Shown here one piece after another: positions 36,500 through 58,284 of a stretch of DNA of 64,000 nucleotides. The translations under genes were made by a program, and so were the position numbers. Origin of the DNA: an uncultured Erysipelotrichaceae bacterium (lineage in GTDB: Bacteria > Bacillota_I > Bacilli_A > Erysipelotrichales > Erysipelotrichaceae); contig OMXQ01000002.1 in NCBI GenBank assembly GCA_900315065.1, positions 1 through 64,000 of the forward strand. The letters are read 5' to 3'. The notes below the pieces were generated by a model. The model saw nothing but the letters and a program-made list of their open reading frames with translations, made no database searches and was not told where the DNA came from. Positions within the stretch are counted from its first letter, which is position 1; every line of letters begins with the position of its first letter.

Positions 36500-37057
36500 T
36501 CATTTTCTTTTTCTTGTCTTGGTAACCGCAAGAATTCTTTCAATGAGTTCTTCGAATTCATAGTCATCGATGTCTTCCTGGGCAGCTGAGATCGAAGCTT
36601 CGGCAACCAGTTTCAGGAAAGACTCGGATTCTTTATATCCATAGCGGCGGATGGTGTCCTTGTAGCGTCTGGTCAGATCAGCAACGAAGTCTTCATGTTT
36701 GTCGTCAATAAAGTTCCTGGCATTCTTGGAGCGGCTTCGCTTGGCAAGACCTTTGGTATAGATCTTGAAGAATTTTTCAATGGCATCATACATATGCATG
36801 AAGTCATTTTCGATGGAAACGCCGATATCCGGTGAGTTTTCTCTCTCAACCTGATCAAATGTATGATTCCAGTCATCCATAATGACGGCATTGATCAATT
36901 CTTCTTTGGAATTGAAATAATTGTACGTAGTACCAACGGCAATATTGCATTTCTCCGCAATCTTGAGCAATGACACAGCGTCATAGCCGCCGCTCATGAT
37001 CTGATTATGTGCCGTCAGAATAATCATGTCTCGGATTCCAGGAATAATTTTAGGCAT
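36500..37057 (-). CDS. TetR-family transcriptional regulator
   Basis: 185 residues. The helix-turn-helix is SLLKIAEKCNIAVGTTYNYFNSKEELI, the classic TetR DNA-binding segment, followed by an all-helical ligand domain. A close paralogue is at 57733-58284: both start MPKII-GIRD, share VGTTYNYFNSKE, and end with DDYEFE-LI-R-L-VT and a basic tail. It is divergent from the LOG-type gene at 37223, its first candidate target. Ligand unknown. Confidence 0.9.
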   Translation of the reverse strand: MPKIIPGIRDMIILTAHNQIMSGGYDAVSLLKIAEKCNIAVGTTYNYFNSKEELINAVIMDDWNHTFDQVERENSPDIGVSIENDFMHMYDAIEKFFKIYTKGLAKRSRSKNARNFIDDKHEDFVADLTRRYKDTIRRYGYKESESFLKLVAEASISAAQEDIDDYEFEELIERILAVTKTRKRK

Positions 37058-37807: not shown

Positions 37808-39325
<1,518 letters not shown>

Positions 39326-40165: not shown

Positions 40166-42484
40166 TTACCGGCTGGCATAGTCAGCTTCCATGGCCTGGT
40201 CCGCAGGCAGCGGCTTGTCAAAGTAGTAGCCCTGGATCTGATCAATGCCGATTGTCACTGCCAGATCATATTGTTCTTTTGTTTCTACCCCTTCGGCAAC
40301 GATCTGCTTGCCGGATTCATGGACAAGCGCAGTCAGGTTGGCAATAAAGTCAGATTTTCCCGGCACCAGGTAGGTATCAATCAGAGATTTGTCAAACTTG
40401 ATGAAATCGACCGGCAGCTGGGTCATGGACGTGATGGAAGAATAGCCGGTGCCGTAATCATCGAGGGCAAGATCCATGCCCATTGCATGAATATTATGGA
40501 AGAATTCCGTGCTTCTTTCCTTGTCGGAGAAAACAGAGCGTTCGGTAATTTCAATCTTGATTCTGTCTTCCGGAATCTCATATTTCTTTAATAGTTCCTG
40601 CAGGAAAGTACAATATCCGGGGTCTTTGAGCTGGCGGGCTGAGTAGTTGATGGATACCACCGGCAGTTTTCTGCCTTCCTTTTTCCATCTGCCCATCTGT
40701 GTAACGACCATTTCTGTCACGATTCTGTCCAGCTGGATAATCAGGCCGCTTTCTTCAGCCGCCGGGATAAACTGATCCGGGTAATATTGATTGTCCTTGT
40801 AGCGGCACAAAGCTTCAAAACCGTAGATGTCTTTCGTCTTAGTACATACCTGCGGCTGATAGAGAACATAGAAGTTTTTCTGACGAATTGCTTTTGTCAG
40901 ATCATCCACAACTTTGGATTTCTGATCCAGTTCCTGCCGCATCTGTTCATCAAAGAAATGAAGACCGTGGCGCTGGTGGATGCTTCTGCCCTGGAACATG
41001 GCAATCTCTGCATGAGCCAGTAATTCGCTGGTTGTTTCATTTTCTTTTCTGACCGCAAAGCCCATGGACAAGGAAACATCCGGCTGGTAGTTCTCATATG
41101 TATAAGCAGTATGAATCAGAGCATCAAGGCGGCTGATCAGAGCAGGATCCAGGGAAATGTCTTTTTTGAAGAGGAGGAAGAATTCATCGCTGCCAAGTCT
41201 GACTGCCATCGTCTCAGGGATGCTTTCAATTCTTCTGGCAAGTGTCTTCAATACTTCATCACCGCACAAGTTGCCGTATTTGTCATTGATAAACTTGAAA
41301 TCATCTATATTCAGAACACAGGCAGATCGGTAAGAAGAAGTGTCAAGGGCAAAGAGTCCGTTTCTGTTCATCAGTCCGGTCAGAGAATCAAAGTACAATT
41401 CGTGGCGGAGTTTCTTTTCGCTTTTCCGCAATCTCTTTGCATCATTGCCTGTCTGGACCATGCCGATAAACAAATTGGCAAGAACCAGCAGGAAGGAAGT
41501 AAAAATAAATGCGGCTGGTTTCAGAATGTCCTGGTATTGGTCAAAGAGATCGTCCCTGGCATTGATCCGCGTCGAATTTTCCGGAAGATCCTTTCTGGAT
41601 ATGTGATATTCATTCATCTTGTCCTGGTCAAAGACGTAAGTCATCTCATCCGGCAGCAGCGGCTGGATTTCTGAAGGAGATGTTCCGTTTATAATCTGAA
41701 ATGCCATTTCTGCTGCCTGAACACCAAGTTTTTCTGCATCAACAAAGCCGCCGCCCAGGGCCCCGCTGCCTACACCCCCTGTCGTAGCCCGGAAAAGAGG
41801 CTGATATGACTGGCTGGAGATCAGTCTGCACATATCATCAATGGAATAGATATTGCCTTCTGCATCATAATAGGCAGATAGTTCAAATATAATCGAATGA
41901 TCATTGATCGCAGCTGCTTTTTTCTTCAATTCTGATTTTGTATAGTCGCTTGTACAGATGATGTCAAATTGATAGCCGGGAAAATCCTTTTCCAGTTTTT
42001 TCACTTCGAATGCATCAGCCTGGCCAGTGCTTGTATCGTCGACAAAAGTCACGAAAGTATCGTATTGGGGAAAGAGTTTCGCAGCTTCTTTATAAACCGA
42101 AAGGTAATAGCCCTTGGACAGAACACCGGTTGCCCAGCCTTGCTGATGGACCTTTTCTGCATAGTCAATATTATCGATGCCCAGATACACTGCCGGTATG
42201 TCTTTGAAAAGCGTATCCCGGTTTTCATCAAAGAAAACCAGAGCAGCATCATCACCGGTGATCACAACGTCATATTGCGTATTCTGCATTTTATATGCAA
42301 GCAGGTCCCTGAATTTTTCTATGTTTTCCTTTTCCGGATGATTTTTGGTATCCATGTATTCGGTATCGAGCATAACCCCGTTATCTTTGCATGCACTGTA
42401 AATGCCTTTCCACTGATCAGGAACCGGGAAATGAGATTGGGAATAGGAAGAAAGGAATAAAACACGATGCTGTCTTTCACCCAT
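40166..42484 (-). CDS. Sensor GGDEF-EAL protein, probably missing its in-frame N-terminus
   Basis: 772 residues in this frame: a periplasmic-binding-type sensor (about 1-290, starting HRVLFLSSYSQSHFPVPDQW), a membrane helix near 325-347, a GGDEF domain with RLGSDEF (GSDEF, one change), and an EAL domain with FEALCRY, DDYGTGYSS and EITER, apparently intact. It should make or, more likely, break c-di-GMP in response to an external ligand. ATG 42482-42484 has no ribosome binding site; the signal-anchor this protein needs is encoded directly upstream in another frame (42485-42639). A one-base frameshift, real or from sequencing, is the best explanation. Confidence 0.85.
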   Translation of the reverse strand: MGERQHRVLFLSSYSQSHFPVPDQWKGIYSACKDNGVMLDTEYMDTKNHPEKENIEKFRDLLAYKMQNTQYDVVITGDDAALVFFDENRDTLFKDIPAVYLGIDNIDYAEKVHQQGWATGVLSKGYYLSVYKEAAKLFPQYDTFVTFVDDTSTGQADAFEVKKLEKDFPGYQFDIICTSDYTKSELKKKAAAINDHSIIFELSAYYDAEGNIYSIDDMCRLISSQSYQPLFRATTGGVGSGALGGGFVDAEKLGVQAAEMAFQIINGTSPSEIQPLLPDEMTYVFDQDKMNEYHISRKDLPENSTRINARDDLFDQYQDILKPAAFIFTSFLLVLANLFIGMVQTGNDAKRLRKSEKKLRHELYFDSLTGLMNRNGLFALDTSSYRSACVLNIDDFKFINDKYGNLCGDEVLKTLARRIESIPETMAVRLGSDEFFLLFKKDISLDPALISRLDALIHTAYTYENYQPDVSLSMGFAVRKENETTSELLAHAEIAMFQGRSIHQRHGLHFFDEQMRQELDQKSKVVDDLTKAIRQKNFYVLYQPQVCTKTKDIYGFEALCRYKDNQYYPDQFIPAAEESGLIIQLDRIVTEMVVTQMGRWKKEGRKLPVVSINYSARQLKDPGYCTFLQELLKKYEIPEDRIKIEITERSVFSDKERSTEFFHNIHAMGMDLALDDYGTGYSSITSMTQLPVDFIKFDKSLIDTYLVPGKSDFIANLTALVHESGKQIVAEGVETKEQYDLAVTIGIDQIQGYYFDKPLPADQAMEADYASR

Positions 42485-42760: not shown

Positions 42761-43762
42761 TCATTGACCGGATGTAAGACCATCCAGGCCGAAATCAAAC
42801 AACATGATATTGACATTGATGATGCTGTAGTTCTTATGCTGGATGAAATAACGGACAACAATATCTGTCTGGGAAACAGGTGAAAAGGCATAGCCGCCGT
42901 AGGCAAGCAGATCCCTGGTTTCATCTTCATTCAGATGCAGACCGATCGCTAAGGCCAGGAGTTTTTCCTTGGAAGGCTTTACCGTTCCTTTCATCAGCTT
43001 GGAGAAGTATTGCTTTGACATGCCGGCACCATTATAGACATCTGAATTTTTCATGGATTTCTTATTGATGAGCTGTCTTAAGTGAGCAGGCAGGGAATCA
43101 TGAATTGCTTTTTTCAATTCTCCTTCCAGATCTTCTTCACAGATCGAAGAAGCACACATTGGTGCGGAAAGATTTGTGCCATACGAAACCGGTTCTCTTT
43201 CAATCCCGCCGTATTCCATGTCCAGGTTTTCTTCAATTTCTGCTTCATCCACAAAGGATTTCACATCGTTGAAGAGCCTGCCGCTGATTTTATAGGATTC
43301 TGCCTCAAAGACGACCAGAATGATGTCCATTTCTTCTTTCTGCAGAAAAGACATAAAAGCATTCACGGCAATGCGCATGGCTTCTTCTTTCGGGAAATGA
43401 TATGTACCAGCTGCCATGAGCGGGAAGGCAATGGATCTGCACTTCAGGGAAGCCGCAAGTTCCAGGGCATTGCGATAGGCAAGCGATAATAATTCTTCTT
43501 CCTGGTGTTTTCCGTCTATGTAGCGGGGGCCGCAGACATGGATGATGTATTTTGCGGGCAGATCAAAGGCATCTGTATATGCTGCCTGACCAACTGCAAG
43601 TTCCCCGATCTTTTTTCTCTCTGCCAGCAGTTTTTCTTTCCCGGCCGCTTTGTATATAGCCGCATCGGTTCCGCTGCCGATCGTGACGTGAGGATTGGCT
43701 GTGTTTACAATCGCGTCTGCTTTGGTTTTTGTAATGTCATTGCGAATGATCTGAAAAGGCAT
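42761..43762 (-). CDS. Macro-domain protein with C-terminal XRE-like helix-turn-helix
   Basis: 333 residues. The N-terminal macro domain (about 1-165) starts FQIIRNDITKTKADAIVNTANPHVTIGSGTDAAIYKAAG and binds or cleaves ADP-ribose compounds. The C-terminal part (about 235-333) has NSDVYNGAGMSKQYFSKLMK and PSKEKLLALAIGLHLNEDET, a helix-turn-helix-like module seen at the C-terminus of several Bacillota proteins, followed by a conserved tail ending INVNIMLFDFGLDGL. The combination suggests ADP-ribose-linked signalling or stress control; no target is known. AGGAGG lies upstream, and a -10 TATAAT at 43789-43794. Confidence 0.85.
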   Translation of the reverse strand: MPFQIIRNDITKTKADAIVNTANPHVTIGSGTDAAIYKAAGKEKLLAERKKIGELAVGQAAYTDAFDLPAKYIIHVCGPRYIDGKHQEEELLSLAYRNALELAASLKCRSIAFPLMAAGTYHFPKEEAMRIAVNAFMSFLQKEEMDIILVVFEAESYKISGRLFNDVKSFVDEAEIEENLDMEYGGIEREPVSYGTNLSAPMCASSICEEDLEGELKKAIHDSLPAHLRQLINKKSMKNSDVYNGAGMSKQYFSKLMKGTVKPSKEKLLALAIGLHLNEDETRDLLAYGGYAFSPVSQTDIVVRYFIQHKNYSIINVNIMLFDFGLDGLTSGQ

Positions 43763-43797: not shown

Positions 43798-44259
43798 TCA
43801 GGCGGAAACAATCGCATCTCCTTCGATCTTTTCCGCTTCCTTTTTTGTCTTTGCGACCAGGATCGAAAGGTCTTCCATTGAAATTTCCTTTACTTTTGAC
43901 AGATCAATCAATGCAGCGGACAAGGTAATAATCGGAAATTCCTTTTCAAAACCGGACCGGTCATGTGAAATGATATAGCCTCTTTTCCTGTCATTTTCTG
44001 TATAGAGAGGCAGAACAAGCCGGCGGAAAGTTCCACACATGGTTCTGCATCTTTCTTCGGCATTTTCTTCTGCTGAAACAAGTACAAAGTCATCCCCGCC
44101 GACGTGACCGATAAAGGCATCAGGAAAAGTGCTGCGCATTGCTGATGCAGCAGAAAGAATGACCTTGTCACCAAGCGCAAAACCATAGTCATCATTGAAT
44201 GCCTTGAAATTATCAAGGTCAACATAAATGATTGTTTCCCGCTCTTTTCTTTCATTCAC
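43798..44259 (-). CDS. C-terminal half of a split CBS-GGDEF protein
   Basis: 153 residues covering most of a GGDEF domain: IIYVDLDNFKAFNDDYGFALGD, then the signature GHVGGDDF. The first strand and helix of the domain (NPLTRLPGNHAIQTQI) are encoded in the upstream frame. It opens with GTG 44257-44259, overlapping the upstream stop TGA; reading back from this GTG the frame stays open and continuous. Either a one-base deletion broke a CBS-GGDEF gene or two coupled half-proteins are made. I favour the former. Confidence 0.75.
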   Translation of the reverse strand: MNERKERETIIYVDLDNFKAFNDDYGFALGDKVILSAASAMRSTFPDAFIGHVGGDDFVLVSAEENAEERCRTMCGTFRRLVLPLYTENDRKRGYIISHDRSGFEKEFPIITLSAALIDLSKVKEISMEDLSILVAKTKKEAEKIEGDAIVSA

Positions 44260-44711
44260 CTGCGGATTTGTGTCTGAATAGCATGGTTGCCAGGAAGTCT
44301 GGTAAGTGGATTGCGATAGGATGCCGTCTGTACGATTTCCTGCAGAAAAGACTGCAGAAGATCCCTGACCGTGACCTGCCCGGCGTATTTTCCGCCTCTT
44401 GTAACTGCGATTGCATCATAGACGGTATCATCCCCGCGTTTCATTGCTTCGGCTGCAGTCAGAGAAACGGGCGTATCTTCTTCAATCGTCATAAAATCCT
44501 GTTTCATGATCTGGGCATTATCAGACCGCTCGTGAAGACCATAGCCGTACATGCCGCCGAAGACATTGAAAAGCCAGTCGCAGGTAATCATTTCCTGCAG
44601 TCTTTCTTCTTCATCAACGACAAAATACTGACGGATATTCTTGTGTTTCAGGGCATAATCATACAGGTCAACTGCTTTATCATGGAGTTTCACGGAAACT
44701 CCCGGTTTCAT
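44256..44711 (-). CDS. N-terminal half of a split CBS-GGDEF protein
   Basis: 151 residues: a pair of CBS-type repeats (MKPGVSVKLHDKAVDLYDYA and QDFMTIEEDTPVSLTAAEAM), a typical VTRGGKYAGQVTVRDLLQSF segment, and the first part of a GGDEF domain ending SYRNPLTRLPGNHAIQTQI before a stop. CBS pairs bind adenosyl nucleotides, so the intact protein would tie c-di-GMP synthesis to nucleotide state. ATG 44711 lacks a ribosome binding site, and the frame runs open upstream with plausible protein sequence (TPAGTALIGQIMKPG), so the start is also doubtful. Family members often have an EAL domain further upstream; none is here. Confidence 0.7.
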   Translation of the reverse strand: MKPGVSVKLHDKAVDLYDYALKHKNIRQYFVVDEEERLQEMITCDWLFNVFGGMYGYGLHERSDNAQIMKQDFMTIEEDTPVSLTAAEAMKRGDDTVYDAIAVTRGGKYAGQVTVRDLLQSFLQEIVQTASYRNPLTRLPGNHAIQTQIRR

Positions 44712-51083: not shown

Positions 51084-51757
51084 GTTCTTTTCTGATCCTT
51101 CAGGTATTTTGAGCCTTCTCTGATACTGAGATTGTTCATCTTTTCCTGATGTGTTTCAATGAAAGCAGAAACCCAGGCAGGATTGGTTTTGGAATAATCC
51201 CGCAAAGCCCAGCCGATGGCTTTATTGATGAAGAATTCATCTGATCCCAGGTTGTTTTCCAGAATTTCTGCCAGCACGTGCGTATCTGTCTTGTCTTTGA
51301 GCAGCAGCTGGAATTCAATGGCACACCTGCGCACCCACATGTTTTCGTCCAGTGACCATGCCGTCATTGTGTCTGATATCGTATTGTCTTTCAGAAAGAT
51401 CTGACCGCAGACTTTATTCAGAACATCAACCGTATCCCACCAGGATTTTGTCATGACGAGTTTCCTGATGCGGGGAAGATCTTTCTTTGCAAGGTACTTT
51501 GCCCTTGCCAATAGATAGTCACAAGCCTGGTATTGGCACTCACGATGGGGATCATTGTAACAATCTGTTATGAAATTCCAGTCTGTTTCCTCTTCCTTTC
51601 TTTGCGCTTTCATGAAGTCCAGGCAGAGTTCTTTGCGTTTTGTAGATGAAATGCCGTAGAAAACAAACTGGTCACGCATGTAGTGCGCCATGGGCAAGGC
51701 TCTTTCTTCGTCCTTGTTTTCTTCGAAAATCATTCTTAATATTTCGTACTTAGTCAT
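51080..51757 (-). CDS. AlkD-like DNA alkylation repair protein
   Basis: 225 residues, a HEAT-repeat-like all-helical DNA glycosylase family that removes bulky alkylated bases. Signatures are MTKSWWDTVDVLNKV, DENMWVRRCAIEFQL, and FFINKAIGWALRDYSKTNPAWV. Trp and Asp residues used by AlkD for catalysis appear in place (WWDTVD). The gene overlaps the dehydratase gene by 8 nt and the HD gene by 4 nt. Confidence 0.92.
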   Translation of the reverse strand: MTKYEILRMIFEENKDEERALPMAHYMRDQFVFYGISSTKRKELCLDFMKAQRKEEETDWNFITDCYNDPHRECQYQACDYLLARAKYLAKKDLPRIRKLVMTKSWWDTVDVLNKVCGQIFLKDNTISDTMTAWSLDENMWVRRCAIEFQLLLKDKTDTHVLAEILENNLGSDEFFINKAIGWALRDYSKTNPAWVSAFIETHQEKMNNLSIREGSKYLKDQKRT

Positions 51758-53501
51758 CGTAGGAAAGATAAGCGCCTTTCATCGGACTGGCGGCGTGTTC
51801 TGCATACATTCTGAGAACCCCTGTTTTGTATTTCAATGGTTTCGGTTTCCACATCTTTTTTCTTTCTTTCAGAATCTGGTCCATTTCTTCCGGTGTCTTT
51901 CTTTGTCCATTGACACCGATGATATTGAGTTTCCGTTCAGGAATGTCAATTTCGATCAGGTCGCCTTCTTCAACTAAGGCAATCGGGCCGCCGGATTGGG
52001 CTTCCGGAGAAACATGGCCGATGACCGGACCCGTAGAAGCACCGGAGAATCTGCCGTCAGTGATCAGGGCTATGGATCTGCCCAGTTCTGCATCTGAGGA
52101 AATTGCTTCAGACGTATAGAACATTTCCGGCATACCGGATCCTTTCGGTCCTTCATAGCGGATGAAGACAGCATCCCCCTTCTGTACCTTGTGGTGCAAT
52201 ACAGCATCCAGGCATTCTTCTTCAGAGTCAAATGGTCTTGCCTTCAGGATGGCTTTGAACATTTCTTTCGGGCAGGCTGTGTGCTTGATGACAGCTCCTT
52301 CCGGCGCCAGGTTGCCTTTGAGGATGGCAATGGAACCGTTGGTATCAATTGGTTTGTCAAACGGATGAATGATATCTTCTTTTGTGATCCGGGTGCCTCT
52401 TGCCTCATTGGCTTTATCCAGCCAGGTCTGGCATTTTTCATAAAAACCGGATTTTTTCAGGTCTTCAAGGTTTTCTGCAAGCGTCTTGCCGGTAATGGTC
52501 ATGACATCCAGATGCAGCATGGATCTGATTTCTTCCATGATTGCCGGAACCCCGCCTGCATAGTAGAAGAATTCTGCCGGATATTGACCGCTTGGTCTGA
52601 GGTTGAGGAGGTATCTTGCATTTCTATGCAGTTTATCGAAAGTATCTCCGGTTACGTCAAGGCCGTATTCATGTGCTAAAGCCGGAATGTGAAGCAGACA
52701 ATTGGTAGAGCCGGAAATTGCCGCATGAACAAGAATGGCATTTTCAAAGCTTTCCATTGTGATGATATTTTTCGGCTTCATGTTTTCATTGCCGGCTATT
52801 CTGACAGAAAGTTCACCAGCTTTTTCTGCATATTCCAGTAAGTCAGGAGAAGTTGCCGGAAGCAAAGCGCTGCCAGGTAAAGTCAGGCCTAAAGCTTCCG
52901 CCATGATCTGCATGGTACTTGCCGTGCCGATAAAAGAACAGGCGCCGCAGGAAGGACAGGCATTGCACTTGGCCCAGTCCAGTTTTTCCTTTGAGATTTC
53001 TCCTCTTTCATAGCGGGCAGAATATACACCCAGTTCATTGAGGGTAAGCATCTCTGGCCCGGCTGCCATGGTGCCGCCGGTAATCATGACGGATGGAATA
53101 TTGACTCTTGCCATGCCCATGAGGTTGCCCGGCATGCCTTTGTCACAGGAGGCGATATATACGCCGCCGTCAAACGGGGTGGCATTTGCCTGAATTTCAA
53201 TCATGTTGGCAATCATTTCTCTTGAAGCAAGGGAATAGTTGATGCCGTCTGTGCCCTGGCTTTCCCCATCGCACATATCCGTGCAGAAATAGCGGGCTCC
53301 GTGTCCTCCTGCCTTTGCAATACCTTTCATGGCTGCATTGACGAGTTTGTCGAGGTGGCCGGAACCCGGATGAGAGTCACCAAAAGTACTTTCTACAAAG
53401 ATCTGCGGCTTGGCAAGATCTTCCTTTTTCCAGCCGGTACCTAAGCGGAGCGGATCCATTTCCGGAGATAACGTACGCATTTTCTGAGAGATATATTCCA
53501 T
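51750..53501 (-). CDS. IlvD/Edd family dehydratase
   Basis: 583 residues. An iron-sulfur dehydratase: FGDSHPGSGHLDKL, CDKGMPGNLMGMA (cluster Cys), CNACPSCGACSF (cluster Cys pair), the GRFSGASTGPVIGHVSPEA segment, and NGSIAILKGNLAPEGAVIK. The family includes dihydroxyacid dehydratase (branched-chain amino acids), phosphogluconate dehydratase and sugar-acid dehydratases. No ilv or Entner-Doudoroff gene is nearby, and the divergent gene carries a LacI-like sugar sensor, so a sugar-acid substrate is a reasonable guess. ATG 53499-53501 follows AAGGAC; a longer frame to 53594 is not supported. Confidence 0.85.
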   Translation of the reverse strand: MEYISQKMRTLSPEMDPLRLGTGWKKEDLAKPQIFVESTFGDSHPGSGHLDKLVNAAMKGIAKAGGHGARYFCTDMCDGESQGTDGINYSLASREMIANMIEIQANATPFDGGVYIASCDKGMPGNLMGMARVNIPSVMITGGTMAAGPEMLTLNELGVYSARYERGEISKEKLDWAKCNACPSCGACSFIGTASTMQIMAEALGLTLPGSALLPATSPDLLEYAEKAGELSVRIAGNENMKPKNIITMESFENAILVHAAISGSTNCLLHIPALAHEYGLDVTGDTFDKLHRNARYLLNLRPSGQYPAEFFYYAGGVPAIMEEIRSMLHLDVMTITGKTLAENLEDLKKSGFYEKCQTWLDKANEARGTRITKEDIIHPFDKPIDTNGSIAILKGNLAPEGAVIKHTACPKEMFKAILKARPFDSEEECLDAVLHHKVQKGDAVFIRYEGPKGSGMPEMFYTSEAISSDAELGRSIALITDGRFSGASTGPVIGHVSPEAQSGGPIALVEEGDLIEIDIPERKLNIIGVNGQRKTPEEMDQILKERKKMWKPKPLKYKTGVLRMYAEHAASPMKGAYLSYDD

Positions 53502-53643
53502 ATTGAGTGTCCTTCTTTTTTTGTCATTATTATAATAAGCCTGATATCTTTCAATATTCTGAAAATATATCTTCTCTGATGCATTTTCATTCATAAAATA
53601 GTTGTGAATTTTCCATTATCTGTAGAATATTTCATGAAATTTG

Positions 53644-53652
53644 TGCTATAGT
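53644..53652 (+). promoter_or_regulatory. Extended -10 of the LacI-sensor GGDEF gene
   Basis: TGCTATAGT on the plus strand (TATAGT at 53647-53652). On the other strand a TATAAT at 53529-53534 may serve the dehydratase. Confidence 0.45.
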
Positions 53653-53678: not shown

Positions 53679-55871
53679 ATGTCTAATCATGTATTATGTC
53701 TGATCACAGGAGATCAGAAGTACCAGTATACATATGAAATGATTCACGGCGTTCAGGACGGAGCTGCCATGCTTGGTGCCACATTGCTTACTATGCCTTT
53801 GTTTGCAGAAGATGAGAATGCGGAGAACGCCGGTATTTATTATTGCCGTGCTGTTGAAGCTGTCGCTTCTCTTAACGCAGATGTCTATATTCTTCCAATC
53901 GGCAATATTACTGTTACTTATGGCAATCAGGCAGATTATCTCAACTACATGCTGAATGTTCTGAAGGATAAGAAAGTTCTGATTCTGGAAGATCATAAGG
54001 ACGGCTATGAGTGCCTGGACAAAGATAACACAGTCGGCATGCAGGAGATGATGGATCATCTGCTCAATATCGAACACTATACAAAGATCGGCATGATTGC
54101 AGGTCCTGCCGCCAGTTTCGGCAGCCGCTCGCGTGAGAAAGTTTATCTGGATTGCATGCATGCTAAAGGCTTTGAGACCTGCATCGGCAGGGGTTCCTTT
54201 GAAGGCAATATCGATGAACCGGTGTATGCCTTTCTGAAGGAGCATCTGGATCTGGAGTGCGTGGTTTGTGCCAATGACAGACTTGCCATAGAAGTTTACA
54301 GATTGCTTGTTTCTTTGGGCAAGAAGCCTGGTTTTGATATCGGTGTTACCGGTTTTGATGATATGCCGCGGGCAGCATTAATGGATCCGCCTTTATCAAC
54401 TGTAAGACTGGATATGTATGAATATGGCAAAGCTGCAGCTGGAGAAGCAGTGAGAATGGCAGAGAATAAGCCGCGTAAGGTGTATGTTTTCCCTTCCCGT
54501 TTCATTCTGCGTTCTTCCTGTTCCATTCATTCTGATGAAGCGAAGAAATCCAGAAACCAGTTAATGGATGAACTGACCAGCCAGGATAAGATTGATATTG
54601 AAGCTGTCACTGACCACATTCTGGAGAGTTCTCCGATTGATGCCGGTATCTTATACAACATTACGAAGAGATTTACGGCTGCCAGTGCTGCCATTGTGGA
54701 AGGAAAAAAAGCAGAGCCGATTCTGCCGCTGATTCATGACATGCAGTTCAGGCTCATGGACAAGTGCCGCTATCCGGAAACTTTGTACAGGTCTCTGGAA
54801 GTTTATTTCCAGTCTCTGATCCGCAATCATCCTTCCGCTGGTCTTTCCAATCTGTTTGATACGATTGCCGGAACCTTTACCCGGTATTTCTATAACACCA
54901 GGATGCAGAACCAGGTACATGAGTCTGAAGTTTATCGGGCAATCATGCGGATCGGTACCATCTCCGGCATGTATGCGGATGAGCCTGACCAGGCTTACAG
55001 AGTCATGCTGGAAGGCATGCGGAAAGCCGGCGTCAGCCATGCCCTGCTTGGCGTAAAGAAGGAAAACAATGATGAGATGATCAAAGGCATGCTGGATCAT
55101 GATGAGATCACTATCTTTGATAAAAACACTGCTCCGAAGGATGTTCCTGCTTTTATCAGGGAAAACTTCAAAGGTAACTACTATGGCGCAGTTCTGCTGA
55201 ACTCCCAGCAGGTAGTCGGTCATCTGATGATGGATGCCGAAGGTACTACGGCAACTGCAAGAGTTGCGATTTCTGTTCAGACTGCTCTTGCCATACGCTA
55301 TCTGAATATCTTCCATCGTGAGCGGGAATTGATTTATCTGCTGAATACAGATAATGCCAAGCTGCAGGAAGAAGCTGAAAAAGACAAATTGACAGATCTG
55401 CTCAACAGAAGAGGTTTTTTACGGGAAGTTTCCGGTGTTCTTAACCAAAATCAGGGCAAAGGTGCTGCCTGTCTCTATATGGATCTGGATCATCTGAAAA
55501 TGATCAATGATACGTATGGTCACGAAAGCGGTGACTTTGCGATTCATAAAGCAGCTGAAATCATCCGTTCTGCTTTGCGGAATACAGATATTCTGGCCAG
55601 AATCGGCGGTGATGAATATGTGGCATTCCTGCTCAATAATGAAGATGGCATGGAAAAGATCAGAGCACGCATTGCCGCAGCTTTTGAAAATTACAACGAA
55701 CTTCATGAAAAGCCGTTTGAAATTGATTGTTCCGTCGGCTACGCTTCTTTCATCATTGACAAGACCGTCAATATCGAACAGATGCTCAGTCTTGCGGACC
55801 AGTCATTGTATCAGGAAAAGCGCAGGAAACATGCCGTGCGCAGTTCTATGCAGGTACAGAATGCATCATAA
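53679..55871 (+). CDS. Cytoplasmic diguanylate cyclase with LacI-type sensor
   Basis: 730 residues with no signal, membrane helix or DNA-binding motif. Residues 1-285 are a LacI-type ligand domain: VLCLITGDQKYQYTYEMIHG at the start, IGMIAGP, CVVCANDRLAIEVYRLL, VTGFDDMPRAALMDPPLSTVRLD in parts, and FPSRFILRSSC at its end, all as in LacI-family repressors without their helix-turn-helix. A long helical and GAF-like middle (about 300-545) follows, then a GGDEF domain (about 555-720) with an intact IGGDEYVAF. It should make c-di-GMP in response to an intracellular sugar or nucleoside. It is divergent from the dehydratase. Confidence 0.9.
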   Translation: MSNHVLCLITGDQKYQYTYEMIHGVQDGAAMLGATLLTMPLFAEDENAENAGIYYCRAVEAVASLNADVYILPIGNITVTYGNQADYLNYMLNVLKDKKVLILEDHKDGYECLDKDNTVGMQEMMDHLLNIEHYTKIGMIAGPAASFGSRSREKVYLDCMHAKGFETCIGRGSFEGNIDEPVYAFLKEHLDLECVVCANDRLAIEVYRLLVSLGKKPGFDIGVTGFDDMPRAALMDPPLSTVRLDMYEYGKAAAGEAVRMAENKPRKVYVFPSRFILRSSCSIHSDEAKKSRNQLMDELTSQDKIDIEAVTDHILESSPIDAGILYNITKRFTAASAAIVEGKKAEPILPLIHDMQFRLMDKCRYPETLYRSLEVYFQSLIRNHPSAGLSNLFDTIAGTFTRYFYNTRMQNQVHESEVYRAIMRIGTISGMYADEPDQAYRVMLEGMRKAGVSHALLGVKKENNDEMIKGMLDHDEITIFDKNTAPKDVPAFIRENFKGNYYGAVLLNSQQVVGHLMMDAEGTTATARVAISVQTALAIRYLNIFHRERELIYLLNTDNAKLQEEAEKDKLTDLLNRRGFLREVSGVLNQNQGKGAACLYMDLDHLKMINDTYGHESGDFAIHKAAEIIRSALRNTDILARIGGDEYVAFLLNNEDGMEKIRARIAAAFENYNELHEKPFEIDCSVGYASFIIDKTVNIEQMLSLADQSLYQEKRRKHAVRSSMQVQNAS

Positions 55872-55880
55872 GTAAATCAG

Positions 55881-55907
55881 GAAGAAGGAGACCCCTTCTT
55901 CTTTTTT
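55881..55907 (+). terminator. Terminator of the LacI-sensor GGDEF gene
   Basis: Perfect 8-bp stem GAAGAAGG (55881-55888) / CCTTCTTC (55894-55901), then TTTTTT. A TGCTATGAT extended -10 for the next gene follows at 55909-55917. Confidence 0.85.
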
Positions 55908-57732: not shown

Positions 57733-58284
57733 ATGCCGAAGATTATCGAGGGCATCAGAGACAGCATTCTTACTTCCGCAAGAAATCAGCTGCGTGAAAA
57801 CGGTTATTCTGCTTTATCACTGCGCGGTGTAGCGAATGAATGCGGTATTGCGGTAGGCACTACATACAATTATTTCAATTCCAAAGAAGCTCTGGCAGAT
57901 GCAGTCGTCATGGAAGACTGGGAAGCATGTCTGAATGCACCAGTGATCAAAGATCCTGAAAAGTGTCCGATTGAAGACACGATCATGGATCTGTACCGGT
58001 CAATCTGTCAGTTCTATGCAGATTATACCGGGCTTGGCTTTACCAGCAGAAGAAAGAACGTTGATATCAATCTCGTTGATAAGCACTATGATGAATTTGC
58101 TTCTGAACTGACGAAGCTTCTGAAAACCATTGTCCGTTCTTACGGCTATAATGAATCAGAATCCTTTCTGCATCTGATTGCAGAGTCCGCTTTGACAGCA
58201 GCTTCGCATGATGTTGATGACTATGAGTTTGAAAAGCTGATCGACAGAGTGCTGGTTGTCACCAGAAAGAAAAAAAGAAACTGA
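57733..58284 (+). CDS. TetR-family transcriptional regulator (paralogue)
   Basis: 183 residues, with the helix-turn-helix SLRGVANECGIAVGTTYNYFNSKEAL. It is clearly homologous over its length to the TetR protein at 36500-37057, with the most change in the middle ligand-binding part, so the two probably answer to different ligands. GGAGG precedes ATG 57733. No target gene is directly adjacent except DUF2974 upstream on the same strand and ybaK convergent. Confidence 0.9.
   Translation: MPKIIEGIRDSILTSARNQLRENGYSALSLRGVANECGIAVGTTYNYFNSKEALADAVVMEDWEACLNAPVIKDPEKCPIEDTIMDLYRSICQFYADYTGLGFTSRRKNVDINLVDKHYDEFASELTKLLKTIVRSYGYNESESFLHLIAESALTAASHDVDDYEFEKLIDRVLVVTRKKKRN

What the first reader, a model, noticed from the sequence alone, without database searches (positions are those of the whole stretch)
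53679..55871. LacI-type sugar sensor wired to a diguanylate cyclase
The N-terminus is a LacI ligand domain without its helix-turn-helix, linked through a GAF-like region to an intact GGDEF. This would let a cytoplasmic sugar or nucleoside set c-di-GMP directly. It is divergent from an IlvD/Edd dehydratase, which may act on a related sugar acid.
Basis: partly seen in the sequence, partly recalled or inferred. Interest (0 to 1): 0.6.

Follow-up and report, generated by a model that had tools for sequence, protein, structure and literature searches.

The report
Soluble LacI-type sensor fused to diguanylate cyclase
This gene makes a soluble protein in which the sugar-binding part of a Lac-repressor-type regulator, without its DNA-binding part, is joined through a helical linker and a GAF-like domain to an intact enzyme that makes the bacterial signal c-di-GMP, so a small molecule inside the cell probably sets the signal level directly; the layout is catalogued but its ligand has, as far as I could find, never been tested.

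Summary
The 730-aa ORF at 53679-55871 (+) has no helix-turn-helix, signal peptide or membrane helix. It carries a complete LacI-type ligand domain (residues 1-283; AlphaFold model matches Lac repressor at Z 25), a helical segment, a GAF fold that sequence profiles miss but the model shows (Z about 9-10), and a GGDEF domain with all catalytic residues and an intact RxxD inhibitory site (motif GGDEY).
About 30 family members in the same order fall on one side of a tree against 12 LacI-type repressors. All keep the catalytic residues, nearly all the LacI-type pocket residues. The helix before GGDEF has quantised lengths (42, 49, 56, 63 residues, plus a 51-residue clade), the coiled-coil rule reported for other regulated cyclases. 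Best reading: a cytosolic one-component, ligand-gated diguanylate cyclase.
The link to the divergent IlvD/Edd dehydratase is weak: no fetched flank of a relative holds one. Instead, GH1 glycosidases lie next to six relatives (about three independent events; 0.3 expected), including this genome's own paralogue, pointing to beta-glucoside-type ligands for part of the family, not specifically for this gene. A 2022 review already lists this domain pairing as unvalidated. New member of a known, uncharacterised kind.

The parts
53679..55871 (+). 730-aa LacI-type PBP / helical / GAF-like / GGDEF protein
53679..54527 (+). LacI-type periplasmic-binding-protein domain, residues 1-283, no HTH
   Evidence: Peripla_BP_3 3.5e-17; family profile vs ancestral LacI 5e-46; Z 25.0, 3.0-3.2 A, 266-267 residues vs Lac repressor
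54552..54971 (+). helical segment, residues 292-383, then long helix 387-431
   Evidence: AlphaFold models; no clear known fold matched for residues before about 411
54984..55238 (+). alpha/beta core of the GAF-like domain, residues 436-520 (structural match spans about 411-552)
   Evidence: DosP GAF Z 10.3 (2.8 A, 120 residues), Lcd1 GAF-cAMP Z 9.3; no sequence-profile hit
55251..55379 (+). signalling helix (predicted coiled coil), residues 525-567, leading into DKLT (DxLT motif, D569)
55377..55829 (+). GGDEF domain, residues 567-717; GGDEY motif 643-647; I-site RNTD 634-637
53644..53652 (+). possible extended -10 promoter element (TGC TATAGT); reading of the sequence only
   Evidence: not listed by the consensus scan
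55879..55903 (+). terminator-like hairpin followed by T run just after the stop, suggesting a monocistronic gene
51750..53594 (-). divergent IlvD/Edd-family dehydratase; neighbour, functional link not supported

Best explanation
A cytosolic one-component signalling enzyme. A small molecule, most likely a sugar or sugar derivative, binds in the cleft of the LacI-type domain of a dimer. Cleft closure moves the C-terminal side of that domain, where the output is attached in place of Lac repressor's tetramerisation helix. The motion passes through the helical segment, the GAF-like relay and a parallel coiled coil, whose register sets whether the two GGDEF domains can meet and make c-di-GMP. The RxxD site provides product feedback. 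Shown here by computation: domain content, predicted fold, retention of pocket and catalytic residues, linker-length quantisation, recurrence in relatives. Inferred: ligand class, dimerisation, register switching, sign of control, biological output.
For: LacI fold at Z 25, Foldseek E 1.1e-16, profile E 5e-46. Of 30 family members counting the window, R152 is kept in 29, D200 in 30, D227 in 29, and F/W/Y at 174 in most; by the printed LacI-family alignments R152, D227 and F174 correspond to sugar-contact positions of Lac repressor. Catalytic D602, D645, E646 and others invariant. No TM segment or signal. Distance from G514 to the DxLT aspartate is 42, 49, 56 or 63 residues in 20 of 30 and 51 in the other 10; Leu at -7 in 27 of 30 and small Ser/Ala at -3 in 20 of 30. 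PMC8041772 reports linker lengths in steps of 7 and a slippery axxdexx pattern for Rec-GGDEF enzymes. A c-di-GMP-I riboswitch and 14 EAL matches indicate c-di-GMP signalling in this genome.
Against: No ligand, activity or expression data exist. LacI-type domains can also read partner proteins (CcpA with HPr-Ser-P) or nucleobases (PurR). The GAF-like domain could be a second, dominant input. The motif is GGDEY; the effect of Phe to Tyr was not tested. One relative (L096) has lost the pocket residues R152 and D227, so the domain need not always sense.
Confidence: 0.68

Rival explanations
1. The LacI-type domain senses a nucleoside, nucleobase or nucleotide rather than a sugar (PurR/CytR-like), tying c-di-GMP to nucleotide status.
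For: PurR-hypoxanthine structures match almost as well (Z 24.3) as Lac repressor (Z 25.0), which counts as a tie. The dehydratase gene cluster includes a YfbR-like HD phosphohydrolase.
Against: Best sequence-profile matches are sugar-type LacI proteins: ancestral LacI 5e-46, RbsR 1.4e-34, AscG 9.5e-34, versus PurR about 5e-30. The recurrent neighbours seen are GH1 glycosidases.
Confidence: 0.15
2. The LacI-type domain binds a partner protein (as CcpA binds HPr-Ser-P), or serves mainly as a dimeriser, and the GAF-like domain is the true sensor (as in Lcd1 binding cAMP).
For: CcpA structures are among the matches (Z about 23). GAF fold present, with Lcd1 GAF-cAMP among the matches. One relative has lost pocket residues.
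Against: Pocket residues are retained in almost all relatives at about 17-31% overall identity to the window protein. The middle region that holds the GAF-like domain is far less conserved, 9-21% identity to the window protein.
Confidence: 0.15
3. Catalytically dead GGDEF domain used as a c-di-GMP or GTP receptor.
For: F647 is replaced by Tyr (GGDEY), unique among the 30 aligned.
Against: All metal-binding and catalytic residues are present, and the GGDEF score is among the best in the genome (6th of 35 matches).
Confidence: 0.04
4. The protein senses the substrate or product of the divergent IlvD/Edd dehydratase (a sugar acid).
For: 84-bp divergent arrangement. Only IlvD/Edd protein in the genome, below dihydroxy-acid dehydratase cut-offs, with only marginal KARI matches.
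Against: No IlvD/Edd gene in the fetched flanks of the relatives. Best solved relatives of the dehydratase are dihydroxy-acid dehydratases, not sugar-acid dehydratases. The protein has no DNA-binding domain.
Confidence: 0.08

Closest known systems
LacI/GalR-family transcription regulators (Lac repressor, RbsR, AscG, CelR, PurR)
   Same: Complete type-I PBP ligand domain; equivalent pocket positions; cytosolic.
   Different: No HTH; output attached at the C-terminal end, where Lac repressor carries its tetramerisation helix; the output is an enzyme.
GGDEF proteins with a Periplas_BP (LacI-type) domain, listed in the 2022 review PMC8846402
   Same: Same pairing of domains; [quoted passage not shown]
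   Different: The review text gives no member, ligand, structure or mechanism for it; this report adds a GAF-like relay, a linker-length rule and neighbour evidence. Its section on the PBP clan describes these domains as periplasmic; this one is cytosolic by sequence.
Coiled-coil-linked cyclases DgcR/WspR (Rec-GGDEF) and PadC (phytochrome-GGDEF)
   Same: Helix of quantised length into a DxLT motif; Leu at -7; small residue at -3; a +2 length class is also reported for PadC (PMC9587094).
   Different: Input is a LacI-type ligand domain plus GAF-like relay, not phosphorylation or light.
RmcA (P. aeruginosa, SBP_bac_3 domain; arginine)
   Same: PBP-clan domain controlling c-di-GMP turnover.
   Different: By the review, RmcA's SBP_bac_3 domain is the only PBP-clan domain studied in c-di-GMP networks and RmcA acts as a phosphodiesterase; here a LacI-type domain sits on a cyclase in the cytosol.

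Membership tests
Diguanylate cyclase (GGDEF) | Metal-binding and catalytic residues (first Asp, GG[D/E]EF signature) | tested here: met
   D602, D645, E646 present; signature GGDEY instead of GGDEF; Pfam GGDEF 2e-32
Diguanylate cyclase (GGDEF) | RxxD product-inhibition site five residues before GGDEF | tested here: met
   R634-N-T-D637 then ILARI then GGDEY; not conserved in most relatives
Diguanylate cyclase (GGDEF) | Converts GTP to c-di-GMP | not testable with these tools
   needs an assay
LacI/GalR transcription regulator | N-terminal LacI-type HTH | tested here: not met
   protein starts at the PBP domain; only 6 open codons upstream
LacI-type type-I PBP ligand domain | Two-lobe PBP fold | tested here: met
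   Z 25.0, 3.0 A, 266 residues vs 1jwl; model pLDDT 87
LacI-type type-I PBP ligand domain | Pocket Arg, Asn, Asp and aromatic at the Lac repressor R197/N246/D274/W220 positions | tested here: met
   R152, N199, D227, F174 by alignment; Lac repressor numbering from general knowledge
GAF domain | GAF fold | tested here: met
   middle region alone matches GAF domains, Z 9-10; Foldseek best E 2.7e-3, so moderate support
GAF domain | Matches a GAF sequence profile | tested here: not met
   no Pfam GAF hit in any of 30 members at E 0.01
Coiled-coil-linked cyclase | Linker lengths in steps of seven before DxLT | tested here: met
   42/49/56/63 in 20 of 30; 51 in 10 of 30

The most novel reading that the evidence does not exclude
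A family of cytosolic one-component cyclases in which a sugar, in part of the family a (phospho-)beta-glucoside handled by a neighbouring GH1 enzyme, binds a LacI-type domain and directly sets c-di-GMP, bypassing transcription and the phosphotransferase relay.
Probability: 0.3. Interest if true: 0.65.

Novelty: new member of a known kind. Interest (0 to 1): 0.42.

Why it matters
Ligands are known for few diguanylate cyclases, and a 2022 review lists none for the LacI-type sensor class (PMC8846402). A soluble, single-chain example with a LacI-like pocket and a well-predicted structure is an easy test case for direct metabolite control of c-di-GMP, and could serve as a sugar-responsive c-di-GMP switch. 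The finding is otherwise a predictable domain combination.

Tried and rejected
Missed HTH upstream: rejected, the frame closes 6 codons upstream. Membrane or secreted PBP: rejected on hydropathy. GAF by sequence: no Pfam hit and no credible PDB sequence hit; only structure shows it. IlvD synteny: not seen in relatives. PilZ receptor in the genome: none found. Published characterisation: searches for LacI-type or Peripla_BP cyclases found only the review; one phrase search returned nothing; the library holds open-licence papers only. Viral structure library: nothing of note beyond separate GGDEF or PBP matches. GH1 neighbour counts are not all independent (L054/L094 share a clade; L056/L101/L102 share a clade), so the headline figure uses about three events.

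Full report
WHAT IS THERE. The ORF at 53679-55871 (+) encodes 730 aa. Pfam finds Peripla_BP_3 at 127-281 (3.5e-17), Peripla_BP_1 at 3-255 (8.5e-5) and GGDEF at 567-717 (2e-32). There is no HTH: the frame is open only six codons before the ATG. There is no membrane helix or signal. An AGGAA-type ribosome-binding site and a possible extended -10 element (TGC TATAGT, 53644-53652) lie just upstream, by my reading of the sequence. A terminator-like hairpin follows the stop (55879-55903), so the gene is probably monocistronic.

STRUCTURE. An AlphaFold2 model from 30 aligned family members has mean pLDDT 87.4 and pTM 0.68. Residues 1-283 are a two-lobe LacI-type domain: Foldseek's best hit is an ancestral LacI bound to fucose (E 1.1e-16), and VIA-align gives Z 25.0 against Lac repressor over 266 residues. 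Sugar-type (LacI, RbsR, CelR-cellobiose) and purine-type (PurR) members score within 1 Z unit of each other, so the fold alone cannot name the ligand. The middle region modelled alone (pLDDT 85) matches GAF domains from about residue 411 to 552 (DosP Z 10.3, Lcd1-cAMP Z 9.3), although Foldseek E-values are modest (best 2.7e-3) and no sequence profile sees it. Residues 292-383 form a helical segment with no clear match.

RESIDUES. By the LacI-family alignments, R152, N199, D227 and F174 sit at the positions of Lac repressor R197, N246, D274 and W220 (Lac repressor numbering from general knowledge). R152 and D227 are kept in 29 of 30 family members and D200 in all. In the GGDEF domain all catalytic and metal-binding positions are invariant; the window protein alone has GGDEY, and it keeps the RxxD inhibitory site (R634-NT-D637) that most relatives lack.

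LINKER. From the conserved G514 to the Asp of the DxLT motif the family shows five lengths: 42 (10 members), 49 (3), 56 (6, with the window), 63 (1) and 51 (10, one clade). Four of the five are multiples of seven. The -7 position is Leu in 27 of 30 and the -3 position Ser or Ala in 20 of 30. The same step of seven and an axxdexx pattern were described for Rec-GGDEF cyclases, with a register-switch mechanism (PMC8041772), and multiples of seven plus a +2 class for phytochrome cyclases (PMC9587094). This supports a parallel coiled coil carrying the signal into the GGDEF dimer. The members are related, so lengths are not all independent.

RELATIVES. Profile searches of 316 genomes of the order found about 30 PBP-GGDEF proteins, in a long form (about 720-770 aa, with the helical segment) and a short form (610-670 aa). 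On a tree with 12 LacI-type repressors of the same order and class, all 30 fall on one side (support 86); the window protein groups with L048, L049 and L096 (support 100). This is compatible with one origin of the family from a LacI-type regulator, but the tree is unrooted and the repressor sample is small. A sparse phylum-wide sample (392 genomes) showed few further candidates.

NEIGHBOURS. The divergent IlvD/Edd gene heads an apparent operon with an alkylation-repair-like gene and a YfbR-like HD phosphohydrolase (the repair-like naming is my reading). No IlvD/Edd gene was found near the relatives, although some flanks are cut by contig ends. It is the genome's only IlvD/Edd protein, most similar to dihydroxy-acid dehydratases but under their cut-offs, with only marginal KARI matches in the genome; its substrate stays open. 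GH1 glycosidases lie directly beside six relatives on the same strand (L054, L056, L094, L096, L101, L102; L051 has one two genes away). With GH1 counts per genome, 0.30 adjacent cases are expected; grouping related loci gives about three independent events, Poisson P about 0.0035. The grouping, and the choice of GH1, were made after seeing the data. L056 is the paralogue in this genome. The window gene has no GH1 neighbour.

SIGNALLING CONTEXT. The genome has 35 GGDEF matches, 14 EAL matches, no PilZ match and one c-di-GMP-I riboswitch, upstream of a gene pair that includes an MBOAT acyltransferase. So c-di-GMP signalling is probably real here, with RNA-level output at least at one locus.

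MECHANISM. Most likely: cleft closure by a cytosolic small molecule, relayed from the C-terminal side of the LacI-type domain through helices, GAF-like domain and coiled coil to the GGDEF dimer. Shown: domains, folds (predicted), residue retention, linker rule. Inferred: ligand class, dimer, sign of control.

NOVELTY. The review PMC8846402 already lists the LacI-type Periplas_BP domain among sensory domains of c-di-GMP proteins without validated function, and says the PBP clan is prevalent with GGDEF/EAL/HD-GYP but studied only for RmcA's SBP_bac_3. So the architecture is known and uncharacterised; this is a new member. The searched library holds only open-licence papers.

Noticed in passing
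L057 2591-2666 (+) (G000 C88): The genome's only c-di-GMP-I riboswitch found; about 380 bp downstream starts a 319-aa protein without Pfam hit followed by an MBOAT acyltransferase, with a terminator-like stem in between. Suggests c-di-GMP control of an acylation step.
   Followed up: partly
L056 7765-9624 (+) (G000 C85): Second PBP-GGDEF protein (619 aa) in the same genome, just downstream of a GH1 glycosidase and upstream of what looks like a branched-chain-type ABC transporter operon.
   Followed up: partly
window 40166-42484 (-): 772-aa protein with an ABC_sub_bind-like domain (just under cut-off), one membrane helix, a GGDEF domain with GSDEF in place of GGDEF, and a strong EAL match: another solute-binding-type input to c-di-GMP.
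   Followed up: partly
window 43798-44711 (-): CBS-domain ORF and GGDEF (GGDDF) ORF overlap by 4 bases in different frames; looks like one CBS-GGDEF gene split by a frameshift, or coupled genes.
   Followed up: partly
window 42761-43762 (-): Protein with a macro domain followed by a Cro/C1-type HTH, a pairing that looked unusual.
   Followed up: no
window 36500-37057 (-) and 57733-58284 (+): Two TetR-type regulators with very similar N-termini about 21 kb apart, likely paralogues.
   Followed up: no
window 37859-39325 (+): GH1 glycosidase in the window; the genome holds about 16 GH1 genes.
   Followed up: no
L115 6998-8847 and L055 2058-4243: Two relatives appear broken into separate PBP, middle and GGDEF ORFs by frame changes or stops, in draft genomes.
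   Followed up: no
L096 128-2302 (-): A close relative that sits next to a GH1 gene has lost the pocket residues R152 and D227 (Asp and Gly instead), so its LacI-type domain may have changed ligand or lost sensing.
   Followed up: no
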